From NCBI GenBank assembly GCA_964016985.1, contig OZ024836.1, positions 42,466,803-42,530,802 on the forward strand: a stretch of DNA of 64,000 nucleotides, read 5' to 3'. Below the pieces are notes generated by a model that ran no database searches, was not told where the DNA came from, and worked only from the letters and a program-made list of their open reading frames with translations. Positions within the stretch are counted from its first letter, which is position 1. Each line of letters starts with the position of its first letter. The position numbers and the translations under genes were made by a program. Positions 5,511 through 52,479 of the stretch are shown piece by piece. Source of the stretch: Anodontia alba. Lineage: Eukaryota; Mollusca; Bivalvia; Lucinida; Lucinidae.

Positions 5511-7923
5511 TATTGCTTCTGGGGCCCTCGTCTGTCCGTTTGTTGTCTGTCCATCCGTTTGTCCGTCTGTCCATTTGTCACGCTTTTTGATGCATAGCAT
5601 AATTTTAGAACCATGCATGCTACTGTTTTGAAATTTCTTAAATGGATTCCTCATGAAACAATAGCAGACATGTATTTTTTTCTCAACAGGATTGATCCCC
5701 CTTCCTGAGTTATGGTCCTTTGAAAAAATATGCATGCAACCTTGTCAGCAAAATATCTCAAAAACTATTAAAGCTAGAGCCTTGAAACTTGATGAATAGA
5801 CTGGTAGTGATGAGTAGGTGATCTGATAACTTTTGAATAAATTTTGATAAATACTTCATGAGTTATGGCCCTTTGTAACCTAGGGCATTTTTACCTTGTC
5901 AGCAAAATATCTCAAAAACTGTTGGAGCTAGAGCCTTGAAACTTGGTGAATTGATTGATAATGATGAGTAGATGACCTGATTGACTTTTGAATAAATTCT
6001 GAAAAATATTTCATGAGAAATGGCCCTTTGTAAATTTGGGCATTTTTCCCTTGTCAGTCAAATATCTCAAAAACTATTGAAGCTAGAGCGTTGAAACTTG
6101 ATGAATAGATTGGTAGTGATGACTAAAAAAATGACCTGGTTAACTGTTGAATAAATTCTGAAAACTACTTCATGAGTCATGGCCCCATGTAATTTTAGGC
6201 ATTTTTACCTTGTCAGCAAAATATCTCAAAAACTGTTGGAGCTAGAGCCTTGAAACTTGGTGAATTGATTGATAATGATGAGTAGATGACCTGATTGACT
6301 TTTGAATAAATTCCGAAAAATATTTTATGTGTAATGGCCCTTTGTAAATTTGGGCATTTTCCCCTTGTCAGCAAAATATCTCAAAAACTATTGAAGCTAG
6401 AGCTTGAAACTTGATGAATAGATTGGTAGTGATGAATGGATGACCTGGTTAACTGAAAAATACTTCATGAGTGATGGCCCTTTGTAATGTTGGGCAAATT
6501 ACCTTGTCAACAAAATATCTCAAAGACTATTGAAGCTAGACCATTGAAACTTGGTGAATCGATTGATAATGATGAGTAGATGACCTGATTAACTTTTGAA
6601 TAAATTCCGAAAATATTTCATGAGTAATGGCTTTTTGTAAATTTCGGCATTTTTCCCTTGTCAGCAAAATATCTCAAAACGTATTGAAGCTAGAGCCTTG
6701 AAACTTGACGAATAGATTGGTAGTGATGAATAGATGACCTGATTTTGAATAAATTCTAAAAAATACTTCATGAATTATGGCCCTTTGTAATTTTGGGCTT
6801 TTTTTACCTTGTCATCAAAATGTCTCAAAAATTGTTGGAGCTAGACCGTTGAAACTTGGTGAATTGATTGATAATGATAAGTAGATGACCTGATTAACTT
6901 TTGAATAAATTCCAAAAAATATGTCATGAGTAATGGCCCTTTGTAAATTTGGGCATTTTTTCCTTGTCAGCATAATATCTAAAACATTATTGAAGCTAGA
7001 GCCTTGAAACTTAATGAATAGATTGGTAGTGATGAATAGATGACCTGGTTAACTTTTGAATAAATTCTCAAAAATATTTCATGAGTTATGGCCTTTTGAA
7101 ATTTTTTGGGCATTTTTACCTTATCAGCAAAATATCTCAAAAACTGTTGGAGCTAGAGCCTTGAAACTTGGTGAATTGATTGATAATGATGAGTAAATGA
7201 CCTGATTAACTTTTGAATAAATTCTGAAAAATATTTCATGAGTAATGGCCCTTTGTAAATTTTGGCATTTTCCCCTTGTCAGCCAAATATCTCAAAAAGC
7301 TATTGAAGCTAGAGCCTTGAAACTTGATGAATAGATTGGTAGTGATGAATAGATGTCATAGATGACCTGATTAACTTTTGAATAAATTCTGAAAAATACT
7401 TCATGAGTGATGGCCCTTTGTAATTTTGGGCATTTTTACCTTGTCAGCAAAATATTTCAAAAACTGTTGGAGCTAGAGTCTTGAAACTTGGTGAATTGTT
7501 ATTTAACTTTTGAATAAATTCCAAAAAATATTTCATGAGTAATGGCCCTTTGTAAATTTGGGCATTTTTCCCTTGTAAGCAAAATATCTCAAATACTGTT
7601 GGAGCTGGAGCCTCATGATAAATAGAGTGGTAGTGATGAGAAGGGGCCTATTGCTTCTGGGCATGAGTGATGACCCTTTGTAAATTTGGGTATTTTTTCC
7701 TTGTCAGCAAAATGTCTCAAAAACTGTTGGGAGCTAGAGCCTCATAACTTGATGAATAGTTTGGTAGTGATGAGATGATCTGATTTACTTTTGAATAAAT
7801 TCTGAAAAAATATTTCATGAGTAATGGCCCCTTTGTAGATTGGGCCATTTTTACCTTGTATTATCTTTAGAGGCAAGCATATGATTGGGGGCATAGTGTT
7901 TTTCAAACACAATTTCTAGTTAA
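5511..7923 (+). mobile_element. Tandem-core element family 2, copy a (5' hairpin lost)
   Basis: It starts within TATTGCTTCTGGGG followed by CGTCTGTCCG microsatellite. Roughly 15 units of about 155 bp follow, with the constant phrases CTTGTCAGCAAAATATCTC, GCTAGAGCCTTGAAACTTG and GGCCCTTTGTAATTTTGGG. It ends with ATTGGGGGCATAGTG, a short hairpin (GTGTTTTTCAAACAC) and TTTCTAGTTA. There is no protein-coding capacity. Confidence 0.8.
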
Positions 7924-11575: not shown

Positions 11576-14205
11576 AGCTCACCTGAGCACTAAGTGCTCA
11601 TGGTGAGCTATTGTGGTCAGTCAATGTCCATTGTCCGTCGTGCGTCATCCGTCGTGCGGTGTCAACAATTGCTTTAAAAGCCTACTCCTACACCCCTGGG
11701 CCAATTGACTCGATACTTGGTAGGAAGCATCAGGGTGACTTGTAGATCGAAAATAGCTAAAATCATGCCGATCGGAAATCCAAGATGGCCGCCATGGTCG
11801 CCATCTTGAAAATCTATTTTTCGCTTCTTCTCCTGAACTGAAAGGCCATTTGACTCCAAACTTGCTAGGAAGCATCAGGGTGACTTGTAGATCAAAAATA
11901 GCTAAAATCCTGCTGATTGGAAATCAGAGATGGCCGTCATCTTGAAAATCTATTTTTAGCTTCTTCTCCTGAACCGGAAGGCCAATTGACTCCAAAGTTG
12001 CTAGGAAGCATGGGGGTGACTTGTAGATAAAAAATAGCTAAAATCGTGCCGATTGGAAATCCAAGATGGCCGCCATCTTGAAAATCTATTTTTCGCTTCT
12101 TCTCCTGAACTGAAAGGCCAACTGACTCCAAACTTGCTAGGAAGCATCAGGGTGACTTGTAGATCAAAAATAGCTAAAATCGTGCTGATCGGAAATCCAA
12201 GATGGCTGCCATGGCCGCCATCTTGAAAATCTATTTTTCGCTTCTCCTGAACTGAAAGGCCAATTGACTCCAAACTTGCTAGGAAGCATCAGGGTGACTT
12301 GTAGATTAAAAATAGCTAAAATCGTGCCGATCATAAATCCAAGATGGCCACCATGGCAACCATCTTGAAAATCTATTTTTAGCTTCTTCTCCTAACCCCA
12401 AATGCCAATTGACTCGAAACTTGGTAGGAAGCATCGGGGTGACTTGTAGATCAAAAGTAGCTAAAATCGTTCCAATCGGAAATCCAAGATGGCCGCCATG
12501 GCTGCCGTCTTGAAAATCTATTTTTCTCTTCTTCTCCTGAGCTGAAAGGCCTGTTGACTCCAAACTTGGTAGGACGCATCAGGGTAACTTGTAGATCAAA
12601 AGTAGCAAAAATCATGCTGTTTGGAAATCCAAGATGGCAGCCATGGTGGCCATCTTGAAAATCTGTTTTTCGCTTCTTCTCCTAAACCCAAAAGCCAATT
12701 GACTTGAAACTTGGTAGGAAGCATCGGGCTGACTTATAGATTGAAATTAGCTAAAATTGTTCGGATTGGAAATCCAAGATGGCCACCATGGCAGCCATCT
12801 TGAAAATCTGTTTTTCACTTCTTCTCCTGAACCAAAAGGCTTATTGACTTTAAACTAGGTAGGAAGCATCAGGGTGACCAGTGGATCAAAAATAGCTAAA
12901 ATCATCCCTATCAGAAATCCAAGATGGCCACCATGACAGCCATCTTGTAAATCTATTTTTCGCTTCTTCTCCTGAACTGAAAGGCCATTTGATTCGAAAC
13001 TTGGTCGGAAGCATTTGGTTGATTTGTAGATCTAAAATAGCTTAAATTGTTTGGATCGGAAATCCAAGATGGCCATCATGGTGGCCATCTTGAAACTCGC
13101 TTATTTTCCTGAACCAAAGGGCCAGTTGATTTGAAAATTGGTAGGAAGGATTGAGATGACTTGTAGATATAAAAATAGCTAAAATCGTTCCAGTCGGAAA
13201 TCCAAGATGGCGGCCATCTTGAAAATCTGTTTTTCTTTTCTTCTTCTGAAATGAAAGGCCAATTGAATAGAAACTTGATAGGAAGCATCGGGGTGACTTG
13301 TAGATGAAAAATAGCTCAAATCGTTGTGATAGGGAATCCCAAATTGCGGTTATGGTGGCCATCTTGAAAATCTTGTTTTGAACTTTTTCTCCTGAACCGA
13401 CTCAAAGTTCATTGAAAGTATCGAGGTGACTTGTAGATAAACAGTAGCTAAAATCATTCTGATTGGAAATCCAAGACAGGGTGGCCACGCACTCTGGAAA
13501 ACAGGGAAAACAGGGAAAATGGTGGAAAAAAAATTCCCTGCAGGGAAAAATCATGGAATTTGAAATTTTGTTGAAAATCATGGAAAAATCAGGGAATTTA
13601 AAAAAATCTTATCTTTGTAAGGTCAAAATATTCAAATTTTATAGCTGTTCAGATGTGGCTATATATTTTACCAGTTTTGATTTTGACTACCATGAAAGTA
13701 AATTAGCACCTGTACATCATATTTTAGATAAATTTTCATTTAATTAAGAATATTGTGACAGCATTGTGTATAAACATGTCACTTGACAGCATTTGAATCA
13801 GTATATGAATTCTAAAAGTAGGGGCCATTGCGATAATATTAAGGTTTTTAATCAGGGAAAATCAAATCAAATCGGGGAAAAATCAGGGAATTTGATTGCT
13901 AAAAATGTGTGGCCACCCTGCAAGATGGCTGCCATCTTGTTTATGTTTTTTATATTTCCCTGCCACTGTGCTGTTTACATGTATAAAATCATGATTCTTC
14001 AGAAACCAATTAGCTAGTTGCCTGCAAATTTCACATTGATCCTACTGTTGAAATGTGATTGAGAGTTTGTTCAAATGATCATGCTCCATTGACTGTCATG
14101 CCATATACAATAATGACAGGACTGGAAAAATGTTGCACAACATCTGCATATCAGCAGTGGCTATGTCACTCAGGTGAGCGACCTGTGGCCCGTGGGCCTC
14201 TTGTT
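11576..14205 (+). mobile_element. AGCTCACC element, copy A (Helentron-like, non-autonomous)
   Basis: The 5' end is the hairpin AGCTCACCTGAGCAC TAA GTGCTCATGGTGAGCT, followed by GTCCGTCGTGCGTC. About 13 units of roughly 145 bp follow, each with a CAAGATGG...CCATCTTG palindrome, GCTTCTTCTCCTGAAC and GTGACTTGTAGATC. The 3' end is CTCAGGTGAGCG, the inverse of the start, then GGCCCGTGGGCC hairpin and TCTTGTT. Minus-strand open frames across the units are repeat artefacts. Interrupted at 13477-13920. Confidence 0.85.
13477..13920. mobile_element. Small CAGGG transposon with 5-bp target duplication
   Basis: A 444-bp insert with inverted ends CAGGGTGGCCACGCA and TGTGTGGCCACCCTG, flanked by CAAGA on both sides (13472-13476, 13921-13925). 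It lies in a tandem unit of copy A, whose sequence resumes exactly after it. The interior repeats CAGGGAAAAATCA. It shares its design with 46078-46370. Confidence 0.82.
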
Positions 14206-14249: not shown

Positions 14250-14465
14250 ACTTGAAAGCCTGAATATTACAAGATAATATATATGGTATTGTCTGGGTTG
14301 TTGATGGGCAGCTGTGTACTTTTGCTGGTCAAACCACCGGTGGCTGGACTGGCACTGATTGATCAAGGCACACTGTCAATCATGTGGTCAATACACAGAA
14401 AAGCTGCAGTCCAGCTTATTTCCTTGGATAAGGAGAAGCAAACATTAGTGCAATGCTGGAGAGCT
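14250..14465 (+). repeat. Dispersed repeat, copy 1 of 2
   Basis: The sequence from ATTACAAGATAATATATATG through GGATAAGGAGAAGCAAAC recurs at 22525-22740 with high identity. Both copies share the AATCATGTGGTCAATACACAG stretch. Class unknown. Confidence 0.7.
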
Positions 14466-14689
14466 CATTATTATTTATTTATTTATTTACTTTTATTTAT
14501 TTATGAAAACTGCCATATTTATTAATCATATTCATATATATTTCTTGCATCTGATTTGGTTGGGTAGTATGGAAATCGGAACCTAAGTCTTATTTATTTA
14601 CTGAGCTCTTTAGGATTGCACTTGTGGTTTGCATCTGCTGCTGTATATATCATCTTTTCTAGGAAATTCCAATGTTAAGAGAAACTACA
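14466..14689. other. Intron sequence, ATTT-rich, nothing recognised
   Basis: Contains a short TTTA microsatellite near 14470-14505 and no supported feature. Confidence 0.4.
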
Positions 14690-15173
14690 TCTCGATATGA
14701 TTTGTCAAAGCAGATATTTATGGATGTTTACAATTCAGTCTAAGTATATTTATGGCTTTCTGTTGTGGATGAGGAATTGGACTATAAAATGACAGTACTC
14801 TAAAGAAGTTTTCAGATACTAATAAGCTGTTCCTAGAAGATCAAGGTTCACTGACTATGTGTTTTCCTGGGAGGAAACTATAGGAATATGCTACAGATTG
14901 TACACCATAGTTCAGTACATATTTCTAAGCATTCTGTACACAAAAAGTTTTAAGTGTTAAGACAACCTAATCTCAATATTGACCAAGTGGAATATATGGA
15001 TGTTTAGGTTCATTCAAAGTATAGCCATCATAGATTTTCTATTATGAATGAAGAATGAGACTATAATATGACAGTGTTTCAAGAAATTCTCGGATGCTAA
15101 TAAACTGTTTGAAGGTCAAGGTTCACTGATTGTGTGTTTTCCCAGGAGGCGACCATGGGAATATGCTACATAT
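14690..15173 (+). repeat. Diverged direct duplication of about 280 bp
   Basis: Two units, about 14690-14965 and 14966-15173 (the second continues at 15984-16035). Each contains TATTTATGGATGTTTA, AGGTTCACTGA, GTGTTTTCC and GGAATATGCTACA, followed by CACCAYAGTTCAGTA and TCTAAGCATTCTG. The second unit is interrupted by a hAT element. Confidence 0.7.
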
Positions 15174-15983
15174 TAGAGGTGAAGCGATTCACTGAATTTA
15201 CAGTGCTTCGCGGTTCAGCGGTCACGATTCGGTTCACAATTCTTTTTCTCAGAGTTTTGATATGGCTCGGTTCACTCAAGTGTAAACAAAAGTCGTCAAT
15301 TAGATTGGTAATTACTGCATGCAAAAAAAATATTTTGCTTCATTCAGATCAATTTAGGATAGTTGTACCGCTGCATGACTACTTTAGACAAGTTTTTAAT
15401 GACTATAACCAACAAAAACAATGTATTTAGTGCTGTAAAATGTACGTGTCATTAGTTTTCGTGACTTCCAAATTTCCCAAAAAACATTTAATTCTTCAGT
15501 CAGTAAACACTGTTATGAATATTAAAAGCATTCAAAACACTCAGGAAATGTCAAACACTTTTTCATAGAATTTTCAATATTTCATGCCATTTTGCAGTAG
15601 CGATTTTCTATAAAATCATAAGTCTGTCTCACACTGAATGAAAGGAACAACATTCATGACAGAACCTGTTTTACCTCTTTTCAAACATTATATATCTGGG
15701 AAGCTTTAGTGCTTTAACTTGATTGGTTATATTAGGTTCTTTTCACTGAAGCAAAAAAGGAATAAATTTTTCACATTATGAAACTTTTACAAATATGATA
15801 TAAAGCCTATGACTGTGAACCATTTCAAACAAACTTTGAAGTATGATGAGCACCTTAGTTGATCATTATAGTATAATCCACATGCAGTTAGTTATTGTCT
15901 CGAGTCTGAAAAGCGTGTCGTATTGTGAAGCAAGTATTGCGCTACGTATCATATCGTGTGGTGAGTGTATCGTTGCAGCCCTA
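15174..15983. mobile_element. Non-autonomous hAT transposon with 8-bp target duplication
   Basis: It begins TAGAGGTGAAGCGATTCACT and ends TGTATCGTTGCAGCCCTA, giving imperfect inverted ends of the TAGGGCTGCAACGAT type common in hAT. Flanks are CTACATAT (15166-15173) and CTACAGAT (15984-15991). The undisrupted paralogous site is at 14885-14945. 810 bp, non-coding. Confidence 0.82.
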
Positions 15984-15991
15984 CTACAGAT

Positions 15992-16739
15992 TTACACCAC
16001 AGTTCAGTAAATAATTCTAAGCATTCTGCACACAGTAAGTGCTCAGCCTCTGTATTCAGCAAAGAATTCAGCTGTGTTAATAATTCAGGATTAAGAATGG
16101 ATATAGGACTAAACACTTGAAGAAATTCAAGTATGGTATGTACAAAACACAAAACTTTCCTGATCATACATACTCATTGGATGGTATTATTTGTGAGTAA
16201 AGAGAATTTGTACAACAGTACAACAGAATGAAATACACTGTCAGTATAGCAGTATATAAGTCTTGGCTAAATAGGATTAGCGATAACTGGAATCTGTTGT
16301 TAGAATACTTCTTAGGGGCCAAAAACTGTATCTGATACTTGTCTTGATATTTCTTGAATGTACCATATTAATATCATTCATAGTAGTTGTACATCACAGT
16401 ATACAGTGCTTCAGCTCAGTTTTGTTTGTTTCTTAAGATAGAATGAATATTCTCTTAACATTAAAATTTTCCTATCCAGAGTCTAGACACAGTCATCTTA
16501 AAGATGAGCTCCATCAAGTCATGAGTATAACATAACACTTAACTGTTGTCATACTTGGGTATGTTTACCACTCCTCAAAACAGTCTTCTAGAAATGTTAA
16601 AACCCAGATGTAGTGAGACAAGTTGGAATAATAATGACATTCTACATTTCAATAAGCAGCACACCATACTGATGGTGCTGAACATAAATCTTCTTGTGAA
16701 AAACTCGACAAGTCAATTTGCTAGATGCTGCCATGCATA
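15992..16739. other. Intron sequence, nothing recognised
   Basis: Apart from the end of the 280-bp duplication (to about 16035) I see only AT-rich intron. The short open frames have no motif. Confidence 0.45.
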
Positions 16740-17560
16740 AAGAAGGCTAATGCTTGACAAGCAGAGCTGACCCTAATTAGATGCTGCTTTTGCGGCCTCT
16801 CATCTGGATGTACAATGTTTGCTCACGCCTGTGTATCTTCCAAATCCTTGGGGTAGATGGGGTAGTTGTATTCTTTTACAGGTTAAAGCTGCTCAAATTT
16901 AAAAACCATTAGTCATATGTATATGTCCTTAGTATGGATTACAATTTGCTAGTTGTCAGTGTGCTTTAAGATGGCTGGATGATTGACAAGCAGAGTGGAT
17001 CCTGACCAGATGCTGTTTTCTTAGGTGTCTGATCTGGGTCTACAAGTTTGCTCTGGCCTAATACTTGGGATAAATATGGTATTTCACTTATTCTTCTGCA
17101 GGATAAATGTCGCTCAGATCTGAAACCATCTATCATATGCATGTACTGACTGCTTGATGCTTGATGAGTGGAGCGAATCATGATCAGGAACTGCTTTGCA
17201 GCCTCTGATCTGGGTCTACAATGCTTGCTTAGGCCTGTCTGTCCCAATACTTGGGATAGGGTAGTTTCTTATTCTTTACAGGTTAAAGTCACTCAGATTT
17301 GAGAACCATAAATTTGTCATAATTTATGTATGTCTGTAGTATAGATTCCATTTTGCTAGTTGTTATTAATTTGCATAAGACAGATGGATGTCTTATAAGT
17401 GGAGCGAACCCTGATCTGACACCATGTTCTGCAGGGTCCAATCTGGGTCAACCAGGTTTGCTCAGGTTTGTCTGTCCCAATACTTATGAAAAAAGATGGT
17501 AGTTATTTGTTCTTTTACAGGAAAATGTTGCTCAAACTTGAAGCAATTTGTCACTTGCAT
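16740..17560 (+). repeat. Diverged tandem repeat (about 175-235 bp, four units)
   Basis: Units begin near 16761, 16990, 17165 and 17400 with GCAGAGTGGATCCTGACC-like starts. They share TCTGATCTGGGTCTAC, TTGCTCAGGCCTGTC, AATACTTGGGATA and TTCTTTTACAGG. The motifs are the same as in the foldback family at 42510-42735, so this array seems to derive from it. Confidence 0.6.
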
Positions 17561-17920
17561 GTTCTTAATATGGATTCAGTGGACAAACAGAGGTACCCTG
17601 TTACACAGTCAATTGATATTTCCAAAACTATTTAACTATCACTGGTAAGCTTACAGTCAGGTGCAATCAAAATTAGTAACTAATAATATATTCTTTGACA
17701 CAACATAGTACAGGTAAATTCAGCCATGATTACAATGGTAAGTAAACTAGATCTCAGAATGACAAAAATCACATTGTTTACATGAAGATGCGATCAGTCA
17801 CCTCCTTGGAGGTTCATCTGAATCATATATCCAGACTTATACTACTATACGGGAAGAGACACTCTACACATACCTGAAGTACAGGTTAGCTACTATATAT
17901 ATCTACTGACATCCATCATT

Positions 17921-20900
17921 CTCTTGGAGCCTAAATCATCCACCCCATATGTTTCATTTATAACCTTCATCAGATCATGAGGGAGTGATTATCCACTTTG
18001 CTGGCTAATTATCCAATTCTATGAAGCTGAGATCATCCACTCCATGCATCTGCTGACTAATTATTCATGCCACATCTCTATTTATGGACATTCGTCATCT
18101 TTTTTGGGGCCAGTTCATCCACCCAAACATTTCATTTATAATCTTTATCTGACCACAAGGCCGTGATCATTCACCTTGGTGGTTGTGAATTCTATGGGGC
18201 AGAAATCATCCACTCCATGCATCCGCTGACTAATCATTTGTTCCACTTTTATATCTGATGTTCATCATCTTTCCTAGACCCGAAATCATCCACCGCAAAC
18301 GTTTCGTTGATCATACCTATCAGACCACAAAGCTGGTGTCTGTAGGGCCATGATAATCAGCCCCACATTTCCATTGACTAATCATACATAACAGGAGGCC
18401 GCAATCATCCACCTCCTGTCAGCTGTGTATCCACAATATGGGGCCGTGATCATCCACCCCATTTCTGTAGTTACACACATCATCAGATCATGGACTGACA
18501 CTCGTCATCTCTCTTGGGGCCGAGATCATCCACCCCAAACATTTCATTTATTGTTATCAGACCACAAGGCCATGATCATCCACCTTGCTGGTTGTGTATT
18601 TTATTCAGTGGGGCCAAAATCATCTGCTCCATGCATCCGCTGACTAATTATTCAATTCCATGTCTTTATCTAGTGACAGTCATGATCTCTCTTGGGGCCA
18701 AGATCATCCACCCCAAACGTTTCATTTATAATTTCTATCAGACCACAAGGCCGTGATCATCCACCTTGCTGGTTGTGTATCTTCCATGGGGTCGAGATCA
18801 TCCACCTCATGCATCTGCTGACTAATCATTCATACCACGAGGCAGGGATCATCCACCTTTTATCTGTGGGGCTGCGATCATCCACCCAACCTCCACATTA
18901 ACCAAACCATTCATAACACGAGGCCGTGATCATCCACCTCATATCTGTGGGGCTGCGATCATCCACCCCACCTCTGCATTGACTAATCATTCATAACACA
19001 AGGCCGCGATCATCCACCCAACCTCTACATTAATTAATCATTCAGGCCGTGATCATCCACCTCGTATCTGCGGGGCCACGATCATCCACCCCACCTCTAC
19101 ATTGACTAATCATTCATAACACGAAGCCATGGTCATCCAACTCATATCAGCTGTGTATCCACGATATGGGGCTGAGACCATCTACCCCATTTCCGTGGTT
19201 ACACACTGTCATCAGATCATGAGGCTGACACTCACCATCTCTCTTGGGGCCCACCCCAAACATTTCATTGATAAGCTTTATCAGACCACAAGGCCATGAT
19301 CATGCACCTTGTTGATTGTGTATCTCAGTCTGTGGGGCCGAAATCATCTGCTCCATGCTTCAGATGACTAATCATTCAATGCCACATCTATATCTACTGA
19401 CATTCATCATCTCTCTTGGGGCTGAGACCATCCACCCTTATGTTTCATTTATCATCTCTCTCAAACCACAAGCCCAGGGTCATCCACCTTGCTGGTTGTG
19501 TACTTCATTCTATGGGGCTGAGATCATCTACCCCATGCATCAGCAGACTAATCATTTATACTACAAGGCCGTAATTATCCTCCTTGTGTCTGTGGGGCCA
19601 TGATCATCTAGCCCACCTCACCATTGACTAATCAATCATAACATGAGGCCATGATCATACACCTGATGTCAGCTGTGTGTCCAAGATATGGGGTCGGCAT
19701 AGTCAAACACATTTCCATAGTTACATACTTATCATCAGACAACATGGCTGAATCTACCTCTGAACATTTTAGGGGAAATGTATATCACAGTATTGAGTAG
19801 CCCATAGAGAGAGCCTATGTTATTTCTTTTTAACACATGGGGCAAAAAAAAAAAAAAAAAAAAAAAAAATCATCTATTCCATTTTGCAATTTTGACATCA
19901 TCAACTGCATGAAGATGAGGCTGTGATCATCTATATCATGAATGTCATCTAATCATATAGGGCTCAGATCATCCCTCCTATTCTGCTATTTAGACATCAT
20001 CAGCAGGGCATGAGGCTGTGATCATTGCAATAATATTTTCATATGTCATCTTATCATGTGGTGTCAAGATCATTCAGTCCATTTTTCTAGTGCTAATTTG
20101 TCTTCATTGTCAGACTTTTCTATGGGGCAGATCTGTGGAAATACCATGCCTGACTTGTCCAACTTGTCCCATTTCCCTGAGGACAAGTAAGAAATTTCAA
20201 TTTACTTGTCCTGGGACAAGTCATTCATAGCTCTGGCTAGAAAGAGTATCCAGATTATAAGATATATATTTTTCTTATTTCTCGAAGAAAACATATGTTG
20301 TGGGTACTCATTAGAAGCGCCTCGGTGAGGTGCTTCTAATGAGTACCTACAACGTATGTTTTCTTAGAGAAATAAGAAAAAATGTCCATTTTCGGGCAAG
20401 TAAATCTTTGTTGGGCAGGTGGTTTTTGACCATTTACTTGTCCGTGGACAAGTAATAAAATATTATAATTCCTCACCCCTGTATCTGGTGAAGATTCGTC
20501 AGTTTCTGATCAGTAAGACTGAGATCATTCACCTCATTCTCTTGTGGTTTGTAAGGGCGCAATCAAATTCTGGGAAGTAGCTGCTCAGGTGAACCAGTAT
20601 CAGACCATAAAGCTGAGATCATCCACTTCTGGTAAGAAGTATCATATCGCACGGACATCAGTCATCCCATTCTGTGATTTCTACATTCATGACAGAGCAT
20701 GAGGCTGTGATCATTGATTTCATGTCACACCTCTGATCATATGTCGACAATGGAGGCTGATCATCCACATCCAATACAGTAAACCATATTATTCAGGAAG
20801 TGAGATCACTCACACTCAGTGTACATATATAAAAGTAGCAGATGGAACAAATTACAACTAGACATCCAAGCCATAGGACTAAGATAAAAGGTAATCATTA

Positions 20901-21030
20901 TCAGACAACGAGGCTGAGATCATCCTCACCAGTTTTAGTAGTTTTTAATTCAGTATCAGACAATATATGCAGCTCGAGATCATCCACTTCCAGGTCAAGT
21001 ATCTTACTCAGGAGGATGAGACTATACACC
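17921..21030. repeat. Array of short hairpins with conserved 13-nt loop
   Basis: More than 20 units share the form stem-GG, 13-nt loop close to CCGTGATCATCCA, CC-stem. The outer stem differs by unit and stays self-complementary: TTGGGG/CCCCAA (18514-18538, 18692-18716), CAAGG/CCTTG (18565-18587, 18746-18768, 19289-19311), ATGGGG/CCCCAT (18438-18462, 19166-19190, 19512-19536), GTGGGG/CCCCAC (18947-18971), GAGG/CCTC (18920-18940), ACAGGAGG/CCTCCTGT (18391-18419), ATAGGG/TCCTAT (19967-19991). Hairpins are embedded in a higher-order repeat with subunits of about 177 and 100 bp and spacers such as CTGACTAATCATTCATAAC. It degenerates after 19700. Open frames across it are by-products. Function unknown. 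Confidence 0.85.
20137..20485. mobile_element. ACTTGTCC foldback element inside the hairpin array
   Basis: Several ACTTGTCC...GGACAAGT palindromes flank a near-perfect 113-bp palindrome at 20269-20381 (arms of about 54 bp from TTTTTCTTATTTCTC to GCGCCTC). The right edge reads as an inverted CAGGGGTGAGGAATTAT, a hAT-like terminus. Array sequence resumes on both sides, so this is an insertion. The left edge is uncertain. Confidence 0.6.
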
Positions 21031-22099
21031 TCATTTGATATTAAATGAATGTAGTAAGGCAAGGCCACAACCACCAGAACAGCTCTTCAAGTCATAAGAT
21101 GTATATAAACAGGTAAAATTGTCAGACCATGAACATCCATCTTGGGCCACTATTCTCATGAAGACATGAGCCACCATTCTGCTAATTTTTGCACTCAACA
21201 GATCATGGAACGTCATCCATGAAGTGCCAACCAAGATTATAGGAAGGCATCTTGGGTTATCCTTACTTATAGCAATTGTAATGCAGATATTTCCGGTCAG
21301 GATTAACAGTTTTATCTGTTCTCCTGTGAGTGATAATAGTTTCTTGCTTTTCACAGTATATTAAGAAACTTTTCTCTTCATGTTAGGAATATACATCATA
21401 CTGTTAGCAGATCAGCTTTAGTATCACAGGATTGTCTTTTTTCACATCAAGTTTGTTGGCAGTGATCATTTCTTGTGAAGCATCGTCAACATACACTTTA
21501 ACTTTCACATTTTGTATAAGTAAAAAATATTATTATTTTCTGGGCATGTATCATATGTTATATAAGAAAAAATTGTAATTATTTCTATGTACAAATATTA
21601 TAAACTAATGATATAAAATGAAATCATGCCAGTTTGGATGAGGTTGAAATCCACCCTCTGGGTATACTGTGCATGGCTTCGACACACATTCCAGCTTCCC
21701 AAAGGTTTTTTTATCTCTGTTTTTTGTGACCGGCTAGTATACTAAAAATGGGGTAATATATATTTCTGTAGCATTAATAAGCAGACAAATAGGATATTAC
21801 AAATATTTCTAACATCTTGTAAATATGAATATTATGATAGAAACTTTGATGTATGTATGTTCTTATTTGATTATTTTATACTCCTGTGGTAATTATTCTC
21901 TGCATTGCCCTTGCACATTCACTGCCCAAAATTATGTAGATTTGTGTGTAGTATGATATAGAAGTGCAGTAAGATTCTCAGTTCTCACATATTAGCAAAT
22001 TGTATTATTTGTGATGTTTAAATAGGTCAGTGAACAAACTTTTTAGTTTAATGTTATGTAATCAACATTTACCCCAGACTCTGTTTTTTTTGAGGCCTC
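21031..22099. other. Intron sequence, nothing recognised
   Basis: AT-rich DNA after the hairpin array. Open frames of 60-107 codons show no recognisable domain. Confidence 0.4.
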
Positions 22100-22440
22100 A
22101 TTTGATACTATCAAATTCGTATGGCCTTCTTGACTCCCCCCCAAAAAACTGGATTCACACTGTCTGAAATATGGAACACAATTTTGGCATCTATCTCTCA
22201 GTTAACTTCATGTGTGGGATCAGACCACCTTGCAGGACTGCTGTCTGTTATCAGTCTGTGTGCCATATTGTTGGGGAGTCAGGAAGTCAAGCAGCCTGAC
22301 ATTACTTAATCATTCACGAAGGTCAAGTGAATAGCCCCCAGGAAAAGAGCCAAATATTTTTATAAATTTTTTTATGTTATATAATAAACATGGAACAGTC
22401 GTATTCTTATGTTTTGTATAAAATGACAATTTTGTAATTG
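22100..22440 (+). repeat. Dispersed repeat, first of two copies
   Basis: AACTGGATTCACAC, GGATCAGACCACCTTGCAGG, CATATTGTTGGGGAGT and TATAATAAACATGGAACAG recur in the same order at 27255-27590. Both begin after a C-rich run (CCCCCCCAAAAAA here, longer at 27275). Short open frame 22121-22309 lies in it but is not supported as a gene. Confidence 0.7.
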
Positions 22441-22524
22441 TAGTTTATGCAAAAGTTTTATTCTATAATACTGCTTCATTATAGACAGGTTGAACTATTT
22501 TTCTTATAACTGACTGAGATCAAA

Positions 22525-22740
22525 TATTACAAGATAATATATATGGTATTGTCTGGGTTGTTGATTGGCAGCTGTGTACTTTGTGTATTAGACAGATCTT
22601 GCTGGTCAAACCACAGGTGGCTGGACTGGCACTGATTGGTCAAGGCACACTTTCAATCATGTGGTCAATACACAGATAAGCTGCAGTGCTGCTAATTTCT
22701 TTGGATAAGGAGAAGCAAACAGTGCAGTGCTCACTCAGCC
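22525..22740 (+). repeat. Dispersed repeat, copy 2 of the 14250 repeat
   Basis: Nearly identical to 14250-14465 apart from a short insertion (TGTGTATTAGACAGATC). It leads directly into the TGCGGAC palindrome cluster. Confidence 0.7.
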
Positions 22741-24280: not shown

Positions 24281-24336
24281 GTACGGGAGGAGAGCTTATC
24301 CCACCCACCATCCCTGGCAGCACCACATTATTTATT

Positions 24337-27155
24337 AGCTCACCTGAGCACGAAGTGCTCATGGTGAGCTATTATGGTCAGTCAATGTCCGTCATGCGGC
24401 GTCTGCCATGCGGCATCAACAATTGCTTTAAAAGCCTACTCCTCCTACACCCCTGGGCCAATTGACTTGATACTTGGTAGGAAGCATCAGGGTGACTTGT
24501 ACATCAAAAATAGCTAAAATCATTGCAATCAGAAATCCAAGATGGCGGCCATCTTGAAAATTTATTTTTTGCTTCTTCTTCTGAACCAAAAGGTAGGATA
24601 GTATCAGGGTGACTTGTAGATCAAAAGTAGCTAAAATTGTTCCGATCAGAAATCCAAGATGGCAGCCATGGCTGCCATCTGGAAAATCTATTTTTCGCTT
24701 CTTCTCCTGAACCGAAAAGCCAATTGACACCAAACTTGGTAGGAAGCATCGGGGTGACTTGTAAATCAAAAATAGCTAAAATCGTTCTGATCGGAAATCC
24801 AAGATGGCCTTCACGGAAATATATTTTTCGCTTCTTCTCCTAAACCAAAAAGCCAGTTGACTCTAAACTTGGTAGGAAGCATCAGGGTGACTTATAGATC
24901 AAAAATAGTTAAAATTGTTCCGATCGGAAATCCAAGATGGCCACTATGGCGGCCATCTTGAAAATCTATTTTTCGCTGCTCCTGAACTGATAGGCTTATT
25001 GACTGTAAACTTAGTAGGAAGCATTGGGGTTACTAGTAGATCAAAAAAAAATAAATCATCCTATCGGAAATCCAAGATGGCTGCCATGGTGGCCATCTTG
25101 AAAATCTATTTTTCGCTTCGTCTCCTGAACTGAAAGGCCAATTGACTCAAAACTTGGAAGGAAGCATCGCTTTGACTTGTAGATCAAAAACAGCTAAAAT
25201 CGTTCCGATCGGAAATCCAAGATGGCTGCCATGATCGCCATCTTGAAAATCTGTTTTTCCCTTCTTCTCCTAAACTGAAAAGCCAGTTGACTGGAAACTT
25301 AGTAGGAAGCATCGTGGTGACTTATAGGTCAAAAGTAGCTAAAATCTTTCTGATCGGAAATCCAAGATGCATGGCTGCCATCTGGAAAATCTATTTTTTG
25401 CTTCTTCTCCTGAACCGAAAAGCCAATTGACACCAAACTTGGTAGGAAGCATCGGGATGACTTGTAAATCAAAAATAGCTAAAATCGTTCTGATCGGAAA
25501 TCCAAGATGGCCGTCACGGAAATATATTTTTCGCTTCTTCTCCTAAACCAAAAAGCCAGTTGACTCTAAACTTGGTAGGAAGCATCAGGGTGACTTATAG
25601 ATCAAAAATAGTTAAAATTGTTCCGATCGGAAATCCAAGATGGCCACCATGGCGGCCATCTTGAAAATCTATTTTTCGCTGCTCCTGAACTGATAGGCTT
25701 ATTGACTGTAAACTAAGTAGGAAGCATTGGGGTTACTAGTAGATAAAAAAAAAATAAAATCATCCTGATCGGAAATCCAAGATGGCTGCCATGGTGGTCA
25801 TCTTGAAAATCTATTTTTCGCTTCTTCTCCTGAACTGAAAGGCCAATTGACTCGAAACTTGGAAGGAAGCATCGGGGTGACTTGTAGATCAAAAACAGCT
25901 AAAATCGTTCCGATCGGAAATCCAAGATGGCTGCCATGATCGCCATCTTGAAAATCTATTTTTCCCTTCTTCTCCAAAACTGAAAAGCCAGTTGACTGGA
26001 AACTTGGTAGGAAGCATCGTGGTGACTTATAGGTCAAAAATAGCTAAAATCTTTCTGATCAGAAATCCAAGATGGCCGCAATGGCGGCCATCTTAAAAAG
26101 TCTATTTTTCGCTTCTTCTCCTAAACCCAAAGGCTTATTGACTTGAAACTTGGTAGGAAGCATCCGGGTGACTTATAGATAAAAAATAGCGGAAATCATC
26201 CCTATTGGAAATCCAAGATGGCCGCCATCTATTCTTCGCTTCTTCTCCTGAAGTGAAGGGCCAACTGACTCTAAACTTTGTAGGAAGCATTTGGGTGACT
26301 TGTAGATCAAAAATAGCTAAAATGGTTTCGATTGGAAATCCAAGATGGCCACCATGGCAGCTATCTTGAAAATCAATTTTTTTACATAGACTTATATAGG
26401 ATGGCCCAATTCTGAGTATTGAAGCAGAAAAGAAAAATGCCATAGATTATCATTACCCATGCCCATGACTTTAAGGTCTACGAAACACAGAGTTTTTGTG
26501 TCATAACTTTTATGTTAAAATATTTAGAGAGCTCATACTTTTCTAACAAAATGATGTATTCAATTAATATATGGTATGATGTTAGATATCAGTCCAAAGT
26601 ATCCAAATTCCCCTCCATTTGTTTGTTTATTCATTCATCAGTCTGTTCATCAGGCCTTCAAAAGCCATGAGAGGGGCTGATTTTCCATAAAAGTTAACAT
26701 GCATACATTGCAACTTTTGCTTTAAAAGACTTCTCTGCTGACACTGCTGGACGGATTTTTCAATAATTTCACAAGAATGTTCCTTGGGTGATCCTCTACC
26801 AAAATTGCTCAAACTGTCCTGCTCTGCTGAACAAGATGGCCACCAGAGCTAAAAATAAAAGAAAAAAACGAAGGCACCATGGGATCTTGCTTTTGTCAAG
26901 CACCCGCCCCCCATTCCCCCAGGCCTATAATACTGTACAAGCCAACATGCTTTTATCTGTGCCAAGCACCATCACATTCCTCCAAAGGCCTGTATAACAC
27001 AGTTCTTAAACCTCCAGCCTGTCATCTGAAAACATTCATTTTCAACAAATTTTAAACATACATGGTCCTATAAAGAGAAACCATAGTCTTTTAGAATATA
27101 CTAGAGACAATGACACTCAGGTGAGGGAATTAAGGTCCTCTGGGCCCTCTTGTTT
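24337..27155 (+). mobile_element. AGCTCACC element, copy B
   Basis: The same design as copy A: AGCTCACCTGAGCACGAAGTGCTCATGGTGAGCT start, about 13 units of 145 bp rich in AAGATGGC/GCCATCTT, then a unique 3' part and CTCAGGTGAGGGAATTAAGG with hairpin GGTCCTCTGGGCC and CTCTTGTTT. Within it, blocks near 24640-25250 and 25370-25970 are nearly identical, a recent internal duplication of several units. Confidence 0.83.
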
Positions 27156-27254
27156 AATGGTGTTGTAGACAATTTTAATATACTGTATATATTATGTCCA
27201 TATATATGTAAATAGTCTTATTACATTGGGGTTGTTCACTGAGACCAGTCCGCC

Positions 27255-27590
27255 CAGATGGCCTTCTTCTCTACCCCCCCCCCCCCCACCCCACCCCATC
27301 CCCACCAAGAAACTGGATTCACACAGTCTGAAATATGGAACACAATTTGGGCATCTGTCTCTTAGTTAACTTCATGTGTGGGATCAGACCACCTTGCAGG
27401 ACTGCTGTCTGTTATCAATCTGTGTGCCATATTGTTGGGGAGTTAGGAAGTCGAGCAGCCTGACATCACTTAATCATTCACGAAGGTCAAGTGAGTAGCC
27501 CCCAGGAAAAGAGCCAAATATTTTTATAATTTTTTTATGTTATATAATAAACATGGAACAGCCATATTCTTATGTTTTGTATAAACAGAA
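27255..27590 (+). repeat. Dispersed repeat, second copy of the 22100 repeat
   Basis: Closely matches 22100-22440 with a longer C run at its start (27275-27300). Direct orientation, 5.1 kb apart. Confidence 0.7.
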
Positions 27591-36215: not shown

Positions 36216-37781
36216 TATGCCCCCAACTTCAAAGAAGTTGGAGGGGCATATTGCTTCTGGGTTGTTCGTCCTTCCGTCCGTCCGTCCGTTCGTCACGCTT
36301 TTTTATGCATAGCATAACTTTAAAACCCTGAATGCTACTGTTTTGAAATTTCATATATGGATTCCTCATGAAAAAATAGCTGACACGTATTTTTTTTCTT
36401 GACAGGATTATGCCCCTTTTCTGAGTTATGGCCCTTTGAAAAAATATGGATGCAATCTTGTCAGCAAAATATCTCAAAAACTATTAAAGCTAGAGCCTTG
36501 AAACTTGATGAATAGACTGGTAGTGATGAGTAGACAACCTGATTAACTTTTGAAGAAATTTTGAAAAATACTTCTTGAGTTATGGCCCTTTGTAATTTTG
36601 GGCAGTTTTACCTTGTCAGCAAAATATCTCAAAAACTGTTGGAGCTAGAGCCTTGAAACTTAGTAAATGGATTTGTAGTGATGAGTAGATGACCTGATTA
36701 ACTTTTGAAGAAATTCTGAAAAATACTTCATGAGTTATGGCCCTTTGTAATTTTGGGCATTTTTATCTTGTCAGCAAAATATCTCAAAAACCGTTAGAGC
36801 TAGAGCCTTGAAACTTAATGAATAGACTGGTAGTGATGAGTAGACAACCTGATTAACTTTTGAAGAAATTTTGAAAAATGCCTTTTGAGTTATGGCCCTT
36901 TGTAATTTTGGGCATTTTTACCTTGTCAGCAAAATATCTCAAAAACTGTTAGAGCTTGAGCCTTGAAACTAGTAAATGGATTTGTAGTGATGTGTAGATG
37001 ACCTGATTAACTTTCGAAGAAATTCTGAAAAACACTTCATGAGTTATGGCCCTTTGTAATTTAGGGCATTTTTAACTTGTCAGCAAAATATCTCAAAAAC
37101 TATTGAAGCTAGAGCCTTGAAACTTGATGAATAGACTGGTAGTGATGAGTAGACAACCTGATAAACTTTTGAAGAAATTCTGAAATATACTTCTTGAGTT
37201 ATGCCCCTTTGTAATTTTAGGCATTTTTATCTTGTCAGCAAAATATCTCAAAAACTGTTAGAGCTAGAGCCTTGAAACTTAGTAAATGGATTTGTAGTGA
37301 TGAGTAGATGACCTGATTAATTTTTGAAGAAATTCTGAAAAATACTTCATGAGTTATGGCCCTTTGTAATTTTGGGCAATTTTACCTTGTCAGCAAAATA
37401 TCTCAAAAACTGTTGGAACTAGAGCCTTGACACTTGATGAATAGACTGGTAGTGATGAGTAGACAACCTGATTAACTTTTGAAGAAATTTTGAAATATAC
37501 TTCTTGAGTTATGCCCCTTTGTTATTTTGGGCATTTTTATCTTGTCAGCAAAATATCTCAAAAACTATTAGAGCTAGAGACTTGAAACTTGGTGAATTGA
37601 TTGGTAATGATGAGTAGATGACCTGATTAATTATTTTGTAAATTCTGAAAAATATTTCATAAGTAATGGCCCTTTGTAAATTTGGGCATTTTTCCCTTGT
37701 GAACAAATATCTCAAAAACTATTGAAGCTGGAGCCTTGAAACTTGATGAATAGATTGGTAGTGATGAGTAGATGACCTGAT
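36216..37781 (+). mobile_element. Tandem-core element family 2, copy b (3' end replaced)
   Basis: Perfect 5' hairpin TATGCCCCCAACTTC AAA GAAGTTGGAGGGGCATA, TTCCGTCCGTCCGTCCG, then about nine units of 155 bp as in copy a. It stops mid-unit where copy c begins. Open frame 36229-36477 (minus) is repeat. Confidence 0.82.
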
Positions 37782-38751
37782 TATGCCCCCATTCGAATGA
37801 AATTGATGGGGCATATTATTTTGCCTTCATTTGTCCATCCGACTGTTTGTCCGTTCATCAAGCTTTTTTTGTGCATGCCATATCTTAAGAACCCTGCACG
37901 CTAGGGTTTTGAAATTTTATATTTGGGTTCCCAATGAAAAAATAGCCGACCCGTATTTTGTTTCTTGTCTAGCATGTTTATTTAAAGTTATGCCCCTTTG
38001 AAAAAAATCAGAATTAAATCTTGTGAGCAAGATATCTTGAAAAGTATTTAAGCTGGGTTCTTGAAATTCGATACAGTGAGTGGGAATGATGTGTACATTA
38101 CCCGATTATATTTTGAGAGAATTCCATGAAAATATTGATAAAGTTACGGCCCTTTGCAGTTCTGCTCATTTTGACCTTGTCAGCAAGATTTCTCAAAAAG
38201 CACTTAAGCTAGGGTCTTGAAATATTATATGCTGATTGGGGATGATGTGGAGATTACCTGGTTTGTTTTTTAGGGAATTCCATGAAAAATTGATGTAGTT
38301 ATGGCCCTTTGTAGTTCTAGGCATTTTGACTTTTTCAGCAAGATATCTCAGAAAGTATTTAAGCTAGAGCCATGATATTTGGTATACTGATTGGGATTGA
38401 GGAGGAGATCACCTGAATAAATTTTGAACCAATTAAATGAAATGTTGGAGTTATGGCCCTTCGCAATTTCGGGCCATTTAATGTCGTTGCTTTATTGTGT
38501 ATAGCATAAGTTTAGAACCATGTATGCTAATGTTTTGAAATTTCATGTTTTGATTCCTCATGAAAAAATAGGTGATCCGTATTTTTTTCTTATCCCAATC
38601 ATCTATTTTAGAGTTATTTCCCTTTGATAAAATAACATTGAAATCATATATTTGTACTGTTGTTACCGTCATGGCTAAGCAGTGTTGGAGTCAAACAGTG
38701 TTAGAGTCAGGCAGTTGGGGGCATAGTGTTTTACAAACACCAGCTCTAGTT
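37782..38751 (+). mobile_element. Tandem-core element family 2, copy c with intact 3' end
   Basis: It starts TATGCCCCCATTCGAATG with a hairpin to ATGGGGCATA, then diverged units with GCAAGATATCTCAAAAAG. The end is GTTGGGGGCATAG, the perfect hairpin GTGTTT TAC AAACAC, and CAGCTCTAGT. The flanks rejoin exactly to the sequence of an adjacent tandem unit. Confidence 0.82.
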
Positions 38752-39760: not shown

Positions 39761-40212
39761 TGTCTCATTACATAAATTACAGCAAACCTACCATGTGCAG
39801 CCAGTTCCTTTAAGAAAGCAAGATGTGTAAGCACAAAATGCAAATAATATTATACATAACAAAGTATGATGGCTTTTATCTGGGTACCATGGCTTCCTTC
39901 ACAGTTCAAACTGGCTCACAGCTGGGTACCTCAAAATCTTAAGTCAAGTGCACTACCACTTTACAAGTGCTTTCCATTTGGTGTCTTAATGTTTAAAGAT
40001 GTAAAACACCAAATCATCATCGTTGTATTCAACATATGATCAAATAAAAACTTTCAATATTGTTTATAGTAGACTTAGCCTCTTAGACTGATATTTTATC
40101 TACTACCGGTAATCTGAATTTGTAAAAATAAACAATATTATTATTAGTAAAATCAAATTAATGTTGGTATTCCATCAAAAAAAAAAAAAAAAAAAAAATG
40201 TGGAAAATGAAG

Positions 40213-40338
40213 AAAACATTCTCATTCCAGGAACATGGGTACAGTGTTGTAACCCTGAATGTTTGAAATGGCGATATCTCCCCGATATCAGTGACCCATC
40301 CAAGGTTCCAGAACAATGGGTCTGCAACATGAATACAA
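40213..40338 (+). CDS. ZCWPW1: ZCWPW1-like gene, CW-type zinc finger exon
   Basis: A 126-bp exon, phase 1 at both ends, encoding the core of a CW zinc finger. Visible signature: TWVQC, four residues, C, then LKWRYLP, a short loop, and EQWVC. These give three of the four zinc-ligand cysteines and both Trp of the methyl-lysine cage; the fourth Cys (YNSC) is in the next exon. CW fingers of this family read H3K4me3. The donor is ACAA before GTATGT. The acceptor is odd: the only AG in the right phase is at 40211-40212 in a purine-rich stretch right after a run of about 22 A, with no pyrimidine tract. Family identity is very strong; the exact 5' edge is less certain. Confidence 0.9.
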
Positions 40339-40524
40339 GTATGTTGTAATTTTTTTTTTTTGCATTTTTTTTTTTGCATTATTGTTATTATTATATACTC
40401 TACACTGTCAGTGGCATAGCCAGGATGGAATTGTTTTTACGTATGCCCAAGAAAATTTCTCCCGAGTATCGCTTCCTAAATTGGGATTATTTTTAAAGGA
40501 AAGACTTTGCCTCCAGAGGGAGCA

Positions 40525-51479: not shown

Positions 51480-52400
51480 CTAAATCACAAATGACAAATG
51501 GGCCCTTTCTATTGTGGAAAGATACTGTTCAAGGAAATACCTCCTCTTTCAAAAGACCCCATTTTCTTCCAACAAACCAAAAGGCCAGAATTGGAAGGAG
51601 GTCAACATTCTCCTAAAAAAGAGGGCAGTGGAGGAAATTCTTCTGGAATCTCCAGGATATTACTCAAGAATATTTCTTGTCCCAAAAAAGAATGGAAAAA
51701 TGAGGCTCATAATAGATCTTTCCACTCTAAACTAATTTGTTCTAATACAAAGCTTCAGAATGGAAACTCAGAAATCAATTCACCCCAACAATTGGGCATT
51801 TTCATTGGATCTGACGGACGCTTATTTGCATGTCCCGATACATCCATCATCTCGCAAATATCTCCGTTTTGCTCTAAAGGACAAAATATATCTTCCAATT
51901 CAGAGCTCTACCATTTGTCTGTCAAAGAGCTCCTATATTCACTCATCTCATGAAAGTAATAGCATCTCATCTTCACAGAAAAGCTATCACTCCCTTTCCT
52001 TACCTACACGGCTGGTTATCAAGAAACCAAAACCATCTAGCTCTATTGGAACACAGACAATTCATCATTCAGTTGATTGTAAATCTAGGACTGATAATCA
52101 ATCAAGAGGTCAGACCTGATTCCATCTCAGAAATTCATTTTCATAGGGATGGAGTTTCTCATTCACCTCAACGTAGTCAAAATTCCTCAAGACAGAATTC
52201 AGACACTGTTAGAGACAATCAGTCCTTTTCGTGCCAAAATAACAATTACAGCCAGATCATTCCTGTCTCGTTTGGGAAAACTCAGTGCAGCAGCAGACTT
52301 TGTAATTCTAGGGAGACTTCATCTCAGACCATTACAAATGTCTCTTCTGGCACACTGGAGACCTCATATTTTTCCGCTTCACCACCAATTCGATAACACA
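51480..52400 (+). pseudogene. DIRS reverse transcriptase remnant, catalytic site lost
   Basis: Pieces in shifting frames: SPGYYSRIFLVPKKNGKMRL (51640-51720), WAFSLDLTDAYLHVPIHPS (about 51795-51850, with the first catalytic Asp in DLTDAY), RKYLRFALKDKIY, then HLMKVIASHLHRK. At 52001-52015 the catalytic YLDDW-type motif reads YLHGW, so both Asp are replaced. Downstream FLSRLGKLSAAADF (about 52258-52305) is the usual DIRS connection to RNase H. Multiple frameshifts show this is an old, inactive copy. Confidence 0.88.
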
Positions 52401-52479
52401 ATATTTGGTATCATCTCAATTGGTGGAACAATCGTTAAATTTATCTAAAAGGTGCTCCTATCAAGAACCCTCCTCCTTC

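What the first reader, a model, noticed from the sequence alone, without database searches (positions are those of the whole stretch)
17921..21030. Array of more than 20 hairpins with one conserved 13-nt loop and covarying stems
Each unit has the form N(x)-GG-[CCGTGATCATCCA-like, 13 nt]-CC-N'(x). The loop is nearly fixed, but the outer stem takes at least seven different sequences and is self-complementary each time: TTGGGG/CCCCAA, ATGGGG/CCCCAT, GTGGGG/CCCCAC, CAAGG/CCTTG, GAGG/CCTC, ACAGGAGG/CCTCCTGT, ATAGGG/TCCTAT. G-T wobbles also occur (ATGGGG/CTCCAT at 18194-18218; ATGGGG/CCTCAT at 18786-18810). Loop length is 13 in over 20 cases. Ordinary satellite drift would conserve or lose both arms independently; paired change with a fixed loop suggests selection on an RNA or cruciform structure, with the loop as the recognised part. 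No known family with this loop comes to mind. It lies in the sense strand of a large intron, so it would be transcribed with the gene.
Basis: seen in the sequence. Interest (0 to 1): 0.92.

Follow-up and report, generated by a model that had tools for sequence, protein, structure and literature searches.

The report
Covarying hairpin array inside mobile element
A run of about 40 small hairpins that share one nearly fixed loop but have differing, matching stems turns out to be the inner part of a non-coding mobile element copied many times around this genome, so it looks like a repeated recognition domain of a genomic parasite rather than a feature of one gene.

Summary
At 17,921-21,038 some 42 units share a GG-13nt-CC core, and their flanking arms pair far more often than chance. 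The array is not specific to this gene: its loop has 725 near matches in the genome versus 41 for a reversed control. It is the body of a dispersed non-coding element of about 8 kb, A1(329 bp)-interior-B1-A2-C-B2, with exact ends, no target-site duplication seen in six copies, and young copies 98.5-99.4% identical. That is the 'split direct repeat' plan of PAT/Ngaro retrotransposons, but no RT or recombinase was found, so membership is not shown. As a set, stem pairing exceeds a tree-preserving null (0/300); no single pair is significant in an R-scape-like test. One orthologous unit occurs with three different perfect stems. Best reading: a repeated hairpin recognition domain of a non-autonomous retroelement, probably bound through the loop. 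Strand, molecule (RNA or DNA) and partner are unknown. Template switching is the main rival. Species and intron were not established.

The parts
14263..14468 (+). A1, left direct repeat, missing its first ~102 bp in this copy
   Evidence: 85% identical to the repeat A of L016 over 227 columns; full A is 329 bp in L010, L016 and L020
14469..22122 (+). Non-coding interior of the element; 15,175-15,983 and about 20,129-20,486 are absent from many other copies and are probably later insertions
   Evidence: BLAST of the fetched loci against the window breaks at those points in many copies; no ORF over 116 aa inside the element in L020, the one copy listed, and no Pfam match to the five element ORFs tested
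17921..21038 (+). Array of 42 hairpin units, GG-13nt loop-CC with variable complementary outer arms
18389..18421 (+). Unit 'D before E': stem ACAGGAGG/CCTCCTGT here; ACACGAGG/CCTCGTGT and ACACAAGG/CCTTGTGT at the orthologous unit of other copies
18496..18832 (+). About 1.9 copies of the ~180-bp higher-order repeat (units B-A-C) whose number varies among copies
   Evidence: TRF period 178; unit order (BAC)n
18827..19018 (+). 81-bp higher-order repeat of units D and F
   Evidence: TRF; clusters
22123..22422 (+). B1, internal copy of the right repeat; B ends ..GTTTTGTATAAA
   Evidence: 95.7% to B of L016 over 300 columns
22423..22731 (+). A2, internal copy of repeat A, directly after B1
   Evidence: 90.6% over 319 columns
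24289..24336 (+). End of A2 and start of spacer C, apparently split off by an insertion
   Evidence: 95.8% over 48 bp
27154..27585 (+). Rest of C plus B2, right end of the element
   Evidence: 87.7% over 432 columns

Best explanation
The array is the body of a non-coding, non-autonomous mobile element with split direct repeats (A1-interior-B1-A2-C-B2), probably moved in trans by the enzymes of a tyrosine-recombinase retrotransposon. The element's nucleic acid, most likely its full-length RNA, folds into a string of some 20-40 short hairpins. Their stems hold open one loop whose core is ATCAT, mostly GATCAT. A protein, either of the helper element or of the host, would read the loop. The many copies would give tight multivalent binding, for example to load the RNA into the helper's particles or to hold or silence it. 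Shown: dispersal, anatomy, recent copies without coding capacity, a largely conserved unit order, and stem pairing beyond descent as a set. Inferred: the helper, transcription, RNA rather than DNA, protein binding, and the benefit.
For: 725 versus 41 control matches in the genome. Element ends and repeats. L010 and L016 are 98.5-99.4% identical to L020 over the long stretches aligned; A1 and A2 of L020 are identical over 329 bp. No ORF over 116 aa and no Pfam match to five ORFs in the L020 element. Largely conserved unit order with variable (BAC)n. Among 31 unit families 89 of 124 outer pairs are Watson-Crick, versus 55.8 (sd 5.2, maximum 78 of 20,000) when arms are re-dealt; the true register has z 6.5, the next best 2.8; identity is 0.94-1.0 in the loop core and 0.23-0.41 in spacer columns apart from +24 (0.48) and +29 (0.50). 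At least 5 of 6 pairs form in 669 of 948 units, versus a mean of 436 (maximum 464 of 50) with 3' sides swapped. On a tree built without stem columns, 22 branches change both sides to a Watson-Crick pair versus 6.4 (maximum 16 of 300), and mean pairing is 0.735 versus 0.285. Three perfect stems at one orthologous unit. Between two lineages the loop core differs at 1 of 80 sites, spacers at 60 of 539 (p 0.002). Interior mispairs lean to G.T over A.C, 12 to 5, p 0.07.
Against: No single pair is significant in the R-scape-like test (E 0.39-13.8). With the tree that includes stem columns, double changes are not in excess (6 versus 4.8, 97/300). Over all family mispairs G.T and A.C are equal, 14 to 12, and outer pairs lean the other way, 3 to 9. 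The - strand folds better (z -4.55 versus -1.30 with 20 shuffles each). Within families both-sided changes exceed expectation (60 versus 34.0), but so does one of four slid controls (shift -1: 69 versus 37.8), so that excess partly reflects sub-lineages. Between recent lineages loop (18/207) and outer stem (14/125) change about as fast as spacers, so present-day constraint is shown only for the 5-nt core, and the core is also spared among private differences (14/1125 versus 222/7620), partly because units were picked by loop. No helper element, transcript or protein is known.
Confidence: 0.42

Rival explanations
1. Mutational upkeep without selection: the first unit held a short palindrome, and template switching during replication or reverse transcription copied one arm onto the other, so arms stayed complementary while sequence drifted.
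For: The mechanism is described for RNA hairpins (PMC8794818, passages seen). Stems are short and often perfect; stem and loop change about as fast as spacers between recent lineages; no strand preference of mispairs overall.
Against: Inside families of nine or more members, apart from the heterogeneous family D, only 9 cells changed on both sides to a Watson-Crick pair against 391 one-sided changes, and both-changed cells are 23 versus 15.7 expected, so repair is not evident in existing copies. It does not by itself explain the conserved loop core.
Confidence: 0.2
2. DNA-level structure: hairpins or cruciforms in single-stranded cDNA or double-stranded DNA of the element, read by a recombinase or replication protein rather than in RNA.
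For: Mispairs show no overall RNA strand bias (14 G.T versus 12 A.C); both strands can form the stems; split-repeat elements are thought to pass through DNA circles (recalled).
Against: Recombinase sites are normally at element ends, not in dozens of interior copies (recalled). Interior mispairs lean weakly to G.T, 12 to 5.
Confidence: 0.15
3. Ordinary internal satellite of a mobile element: unit turnover by unequal crossing-over with an ancestral palindrome, no function.
For: Higher-order (BAC)n copy number varies; many mobile elements carry internal tandem repeats (recalled); 279 of 948 units have fewer than 5 of 6 pairs.
Against: Six different fully complementary four-pair outer stems among 31 families and mean pairing above the tree null (0/300) are not expected from drift.
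Confidence: 0.15
4. The loop is a double-stranded DNA binding site (enhancer-like array), and the stems are incidental.
For: The loop core is nearly invariant; the units of each array share one orientation.
Against: Gives no reason for complementary arms that vary together.
Confidence: 0.08

Closest known systems
PAT/Ngaro/VIPER-type retrotransposons with split direct repeats
   Same: Repeat order A1 at the 5' end and B1, A2, B2 at the 3' end, as described in PMC4157794 and PMC6681497 (passages seen); no target-site duplication seen here
   Different: No RT or tyrosine recombinase found; interior is non-coding and carries the hairpin array; a spacer C of about 140 bp lies between A2 and B2
Non-autonomous LTR elements (LARD/TRIM), features recalled
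   Same: Large non-coding interior with direct repeats, recent copies nearly identical
   Different: Repeat A is not at the right end, which is B; no target-site duplication seen; ends do not read TG..CA
Xist A-repeat and the retroviral RNAs that bind Spen
   Same: Repeated structured RNA units linked to mobile elements that gather a protein; several copies add up (PMC7282817, passages seen)
   Different: About 8 repeats there versus 20-41 detected units in 28 of 31 places here; no sequence comparison was run; no protein or silencing shown here
Internal satellites of mobile elements (recalled)
   Same: Tandem and higher-order repeats with changing copy number
   Different: Paired change of stem arms around a fixed loop and a largely conserved unit order

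Membership tests
Split-direct-repeat (PAT/Ngaro) retrotransposon | Repeats in order A1 ... B1 A2 ... B2 | tested here: met
   A1-interior-B1-A2-C-B2 seen in L010, L012, L016, L020 (B2 cut short) and, broken up, in the window; L019 has 118 extra interior-like bases between A2 and C and a shortened B2; L017, L023 and L028 show B1-A2-C-B2 without an A1 match in the fetched stretch; L013 ends just after A2; L009, L021 and L025 end after B1
Split-direct-repeat (PAT/Ngaro) retrotransposon | Encodes reverse transcriptase | tested here: not met
   No ORF over 116 aa inside the L020 element, no Pfam match to five ORFs; only this copy was tested; a search for an autonomous relative did not complete by the genome search
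Split-direct-repeat (PAT/Ngaro) retrotransposon | Encodes tyrosine recombinase | tested here: not met
   As above
Split-direct-repeat (PAT/Ngaro) retrotransposon | Integration without target-site duplication (recalled) | tested here: met
   Flanks of L010, L012, L016, L019, L021 and L025 read by eye show no duplication; L016 sits in a tandem repeat and shows none. Small sample, no statistical test
LTR retrotransposon / LARD | Same direct repeat at both ends | tested here: not met
   Left end is A, right end is B in the copies whose right end was read; L013, which ends just after A2, is an exception
LTR retrotransposon / LARD | 4-6 bp target-site duplication (recalled) | tested here: not met
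   None seen in six copies
Helitron | 5' TC and 3' CTRR with a hairpin (recalled) | tested here: not met
   Ends read ATGACAATTT and GTTTTGTATAAA
Any Rfam family | Score above the gathering threshold | tested here: not met
   0 matches in the window and in 8 of the 20 ten-kb loci
Retrozyme / hammerhead-bearing element | Hammerhead ribozyme in the repeats (recalled) | tested here: not met
   No Rfam match in the window and 8 loci
Simple satellite | Homogeneous tandem repeat without a larger host element | tested here: not met
   62 clusters of units, 31 with three or more members, in a largely conserved order inside an element with defined ends

The most novel reading that the evidence does not exclude
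A new kind of RNA domain: a multivalent array of 20-40 protein-binding hairpins, kept by compensatory change, through which a non-coding element hijacks the particle or enzymes of a tyrosine-recombinase retrotransposon (or attracts a host silencing factor).
Probability: 0.3. Interest if true: 0.85.

Novelty: new variant of a known kind. Interest (0 to 1): 0.62.

Why it matters
How non-coding elements are recognised in trans by split-repeat retrotransposons is, as far as I recall, unknown. A young family with nearly identical copies, exact ends and a countable array of one hairpin motif would make that question testable: the array can be expressed, footprinted and used as bait. It also offers a natural test of selection against template switching as causes of paired change, because source-lineage and dead copies can be compared in one genome.

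Tried and rejected
Gene-specific intronic RNA: rejected, since the array recurs across the genome. Known RNA family: none in the window and 8 loci. LTR/LARD and Helitron: ends and repeat order do not fit. Loop-loop kissing through the TGATCA palindrome: considered and set aside because unit column 5 varies (A 49%, T 38%, C 11%) while its partner column 10 is 99% A. Relatives in viral contigs: 12 contigs with one exact 17-mer each and no second unit at the cut-off used; I take them for chance matches, with no shuffled control. Finding a strand from G.T versus A.C mispairs: inconclusive. Repair in dead copies: not evident outside family D. Coding remnants in the L020 element: none found by Pfam among five ORFs. 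An autonomous helper with the same repeat A, and the genome-wide count of B1|A2 junctions: the tool did not complete. Literature searches for retrotransposon tandem hairpins, non-autonomous split-repeat elements, LARDs with conserved structure and bivalve hairpin repeats listed 0, 4, 4 and 1 papers; nothing in the titles and abstract openings describes this. Of those nine only passages of PMC6681497 were seen, so absence from print is not shown.

Full report
WHAT WAS CLAIMED AND CHECKED. The sequence shows them. A 17-mer profile finds 44 sites on the + strand in 17.5-21.3 kb at a loose cut-off and none on the - strand there, with 19 weaker sites elsewhere in the window; at a stricter cut-off 37 sites and none elsewhere in the window. 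A direct pattern search finds 21 matches with up to 3 mismatches, against 0.07 expected. Forty-two units align without gaps. The six-pair stem pairs in 80.6% of cells versus 69.3% after shuffling and 42.5-58.7% when slid; both-sided changes are 45 cells versus 17.6 (0/500), while two of the five measures do not beat shuffling (249/500 and 128/500). RNAalifold finds five of the six pairs, weakly (-0.96 kcal/mol). The loop length is built into the search.

IT IS A DISPERSED ELEMENT. The window lies in an assembly of 1.86 Gb in 317 contigs. The loop pattern with up to 2 mismatches has 725 matches, its reversed control 41; the 100 places listed lie on 11 contigs, both strands. From those 100 exact matches I took 34 clusters: 20 stretches of 10 kb and 14 of 3 kb. 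The sample is therefore biased to well-kept units. In 19 of the 20 ten-kb loci BLAST finds the array; L015 had one unit and only a different repeat. In 17 of the 20 (all but L011, L015 and L022) the best matches shown also run beyond the array, within window 14,263-22,731 (nine best rows per locus), and to 27,585 once A2-C-B2 is searched.

ANATOMY. Several copies carry a 329-bp direct repeat A at the left end and again near the right end; A1 and A2 of L020 are identical. A2 is followed by a spacer C of about 140 bp and a repeat B of about 297 bp, and the same B lies just before A2. The plan is A1-interior-B1-A2-C-B2. Left ends begin at ATGACAATTT with differing flanks in 8 of the 17 oriented loci; B ends at GTATAAA, and the internal junction is GTATAAA|ATGAC. 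No target-site duplication was seen by eye in the six copies with both flanks read, including L016, which sits in a tandem repeat. Irregular copies: L009, L021 and L025 end after B1; L013 ends just after A2; L019 has 118 extra bases between A2 and C; L026 has B before A1. That repeat order is described for PAT, Ngaro and VIPER elements (PMC4157794 and PMC6681497, passages seen). The L020 copy has no ORF over 116 aa within the element and five of its ORFs have no Pfam match, so it looks non-autonomous, and membership in the YR class is not shown. L016 and L020 are 98.5% identical over 8.1 kb, and L010 is 98.9-99.4% identical to L020 over two stretches, so the family moved recently. In the window the copy is older and broken by insertions.

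UNITS AND ORDER. Of 959 units found in the 34 fetched loci and the window, 948 were kept (30 loci and the window; 11 units from L015, L046, L047 and L050, each with fewer than 5, were dropped). They fall into 62 clusters, 31 with three or more members. Most arrays share an order such as N-C-A-I-B-X-V-D-E-(BAC)n-D-F-D-b-A-C-G-A-C-D-a-Y-H-J-K-L, with variable (BAC)n, and at least one other lineage (S-I-B-W-Q-D-E...); some, such as L011, L022, L042 and L045, are partial or irregular.

COVARIATION. Among the 31 family consensus strings, outer pairs -1 to -4 are Watson-Crick in 89 of 124 cases, versus 55.8 (sd 5.2, maximum 78) in 20,000 re-dealings; 13 families have all four, with six different stems (ATGG, ATGA, TTGG, GTGG, ACGA, ATAG); z is 6.5 in the true register and at most 2.8 in 15 slid ones. 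Identity is 0.23-0.41 in spacer columns apart from +24 and +29 (0.48, 0.50), 0.39-0.82 in the rest of the loop and 0.94-1.0 in its core, though units were picked by loop. At least 5 of 6 pairs form in 669 of 948 units versus 436 on average with 3' sides swapped. An R-scape-like test with 689 unique units and 100 tree-preserving null sets puts the four outer pairs at ranks 1, 11, 7 and 8 of 1081, with E-values 0.39, 13.8, 8.0 and 8.4, and the two inner pairs at ranks 577 and 317: none significant alone. As a set, mean pairing of the four outer pairs is 0.735 versus 0.33 (tree from all columns) or 0.285 (tree without stem columns), 0/300 in each; both-sided changes to Watson-Crick are 22 versus 6.4 (0/300) on the second tree but only 6 versus 4.8 (97/300) on the first. 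The clearest case is the D unit before E: ACACGAGG/CCTCGTGT in 3 of 8 copies of one lineage (the other five carry single changes or variants, some mispaired), ACACAAGG/CCTTGTGT arms in 10 of 10 of another, ACAGGAGG/CCTCCTGT in the window, with nearly the same surroundings.

LIMITS. Strand and molecule are open. Mispairs among families are 14 G.T and 12 A.C; inner pairs favour G.T 11 to 3, outer pairs A.C 9 to 3; interior mispairs are 12 to 5 (p 0.07). A 741-nt piece folds with z -1.30 on the + strand and -4.55 on the - strand (20 shuffles each); single units gain about 1.9 kcal/mol from their true partner arm on either strand. Between two lineages, at 16 unit positions, differences are 18/207 in the loop, 14/125 in outer stems, 60/539 in spacers and 1/80 in the loop core (p 0.002); private differences also spare the core (14/1125 versus 222/7620). 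So recent constraint is shown only for the core, and detection bias adds to it. Within families, both-sided changes at outer pairs are 60 versus 34.0 expected, but a slid control (shift -1) also exceeds its expectation, 69 versus 37.8, while shifts +1, +2 and +3 do not; outside family D, over all six pairs, copies show 391 one-sided and 9 two-sided Watson-Crick changes.

INTERPRETATION. Drift from one palindrome is not expected to give six different perfect stems around one loop. Selection for a structure, or arm-to-arm copying by template switching (PMC8794818, passages seen), could. The conserved core favours a recognised loop. The most likely use is multivalent binding of a protein to the element's RNA, as with the Xist A-repeat and Spen-bound retroviral RNA (PMC7282817, passages seen); this is analogy, not membership. 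The search for a coding relative could not be run: every genome search after did not complete.

CONTEXT. A zf-CW frame lies at 40,113-40,346 on the + strand (PF07496).

Noticed in passing
window 51484-52445 and 59193-60064: Broken frames that look by eye like a DIRS-type reverse transcriptase (one frame matches RVT_1, E 0.0022, below its cut-off) and a tyrosine recombinase (no Pfam support); a possible sign of helper enzymes in this genome.
   Followed up: partly
window 53438-53869 (-): RVT_2 reverse transcriptase fragment, E 8e-11, between those two regions.
   Followed up: no
window 40113-40346 (+): zf-CW coding frame; a frame at 42748 resembles a PWWP domain by eye but has no Pfam match, so a ZCWPW-like gene is only suggested.
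   Followed up: partly
window 11699-13400 and 24592-26383: Two copies of one ~145-bp tandem repeat family at about 80% identity; the second lies inside the broken right end of the element.
   Followed up: no
window 5739-7859 and 36457-37783: Two arrays whose 155-bp repeat consensus looks nearly the same by eye.
   Followed up: no
window 16714-17548: A second set of diverged direct repeats (178-407 bp spacing) just left of the hairpin array, inside the same element.
   Followed up: no
window 20265-20382: Near-palindromic sequence inserted in the array; L015 shows nine matches to it, the display limit.
   Followed up: no
window 18001-20000: Strong negative GC skew (-0.25) over the array, so the - strand is G-rich.
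   Followed up: partly
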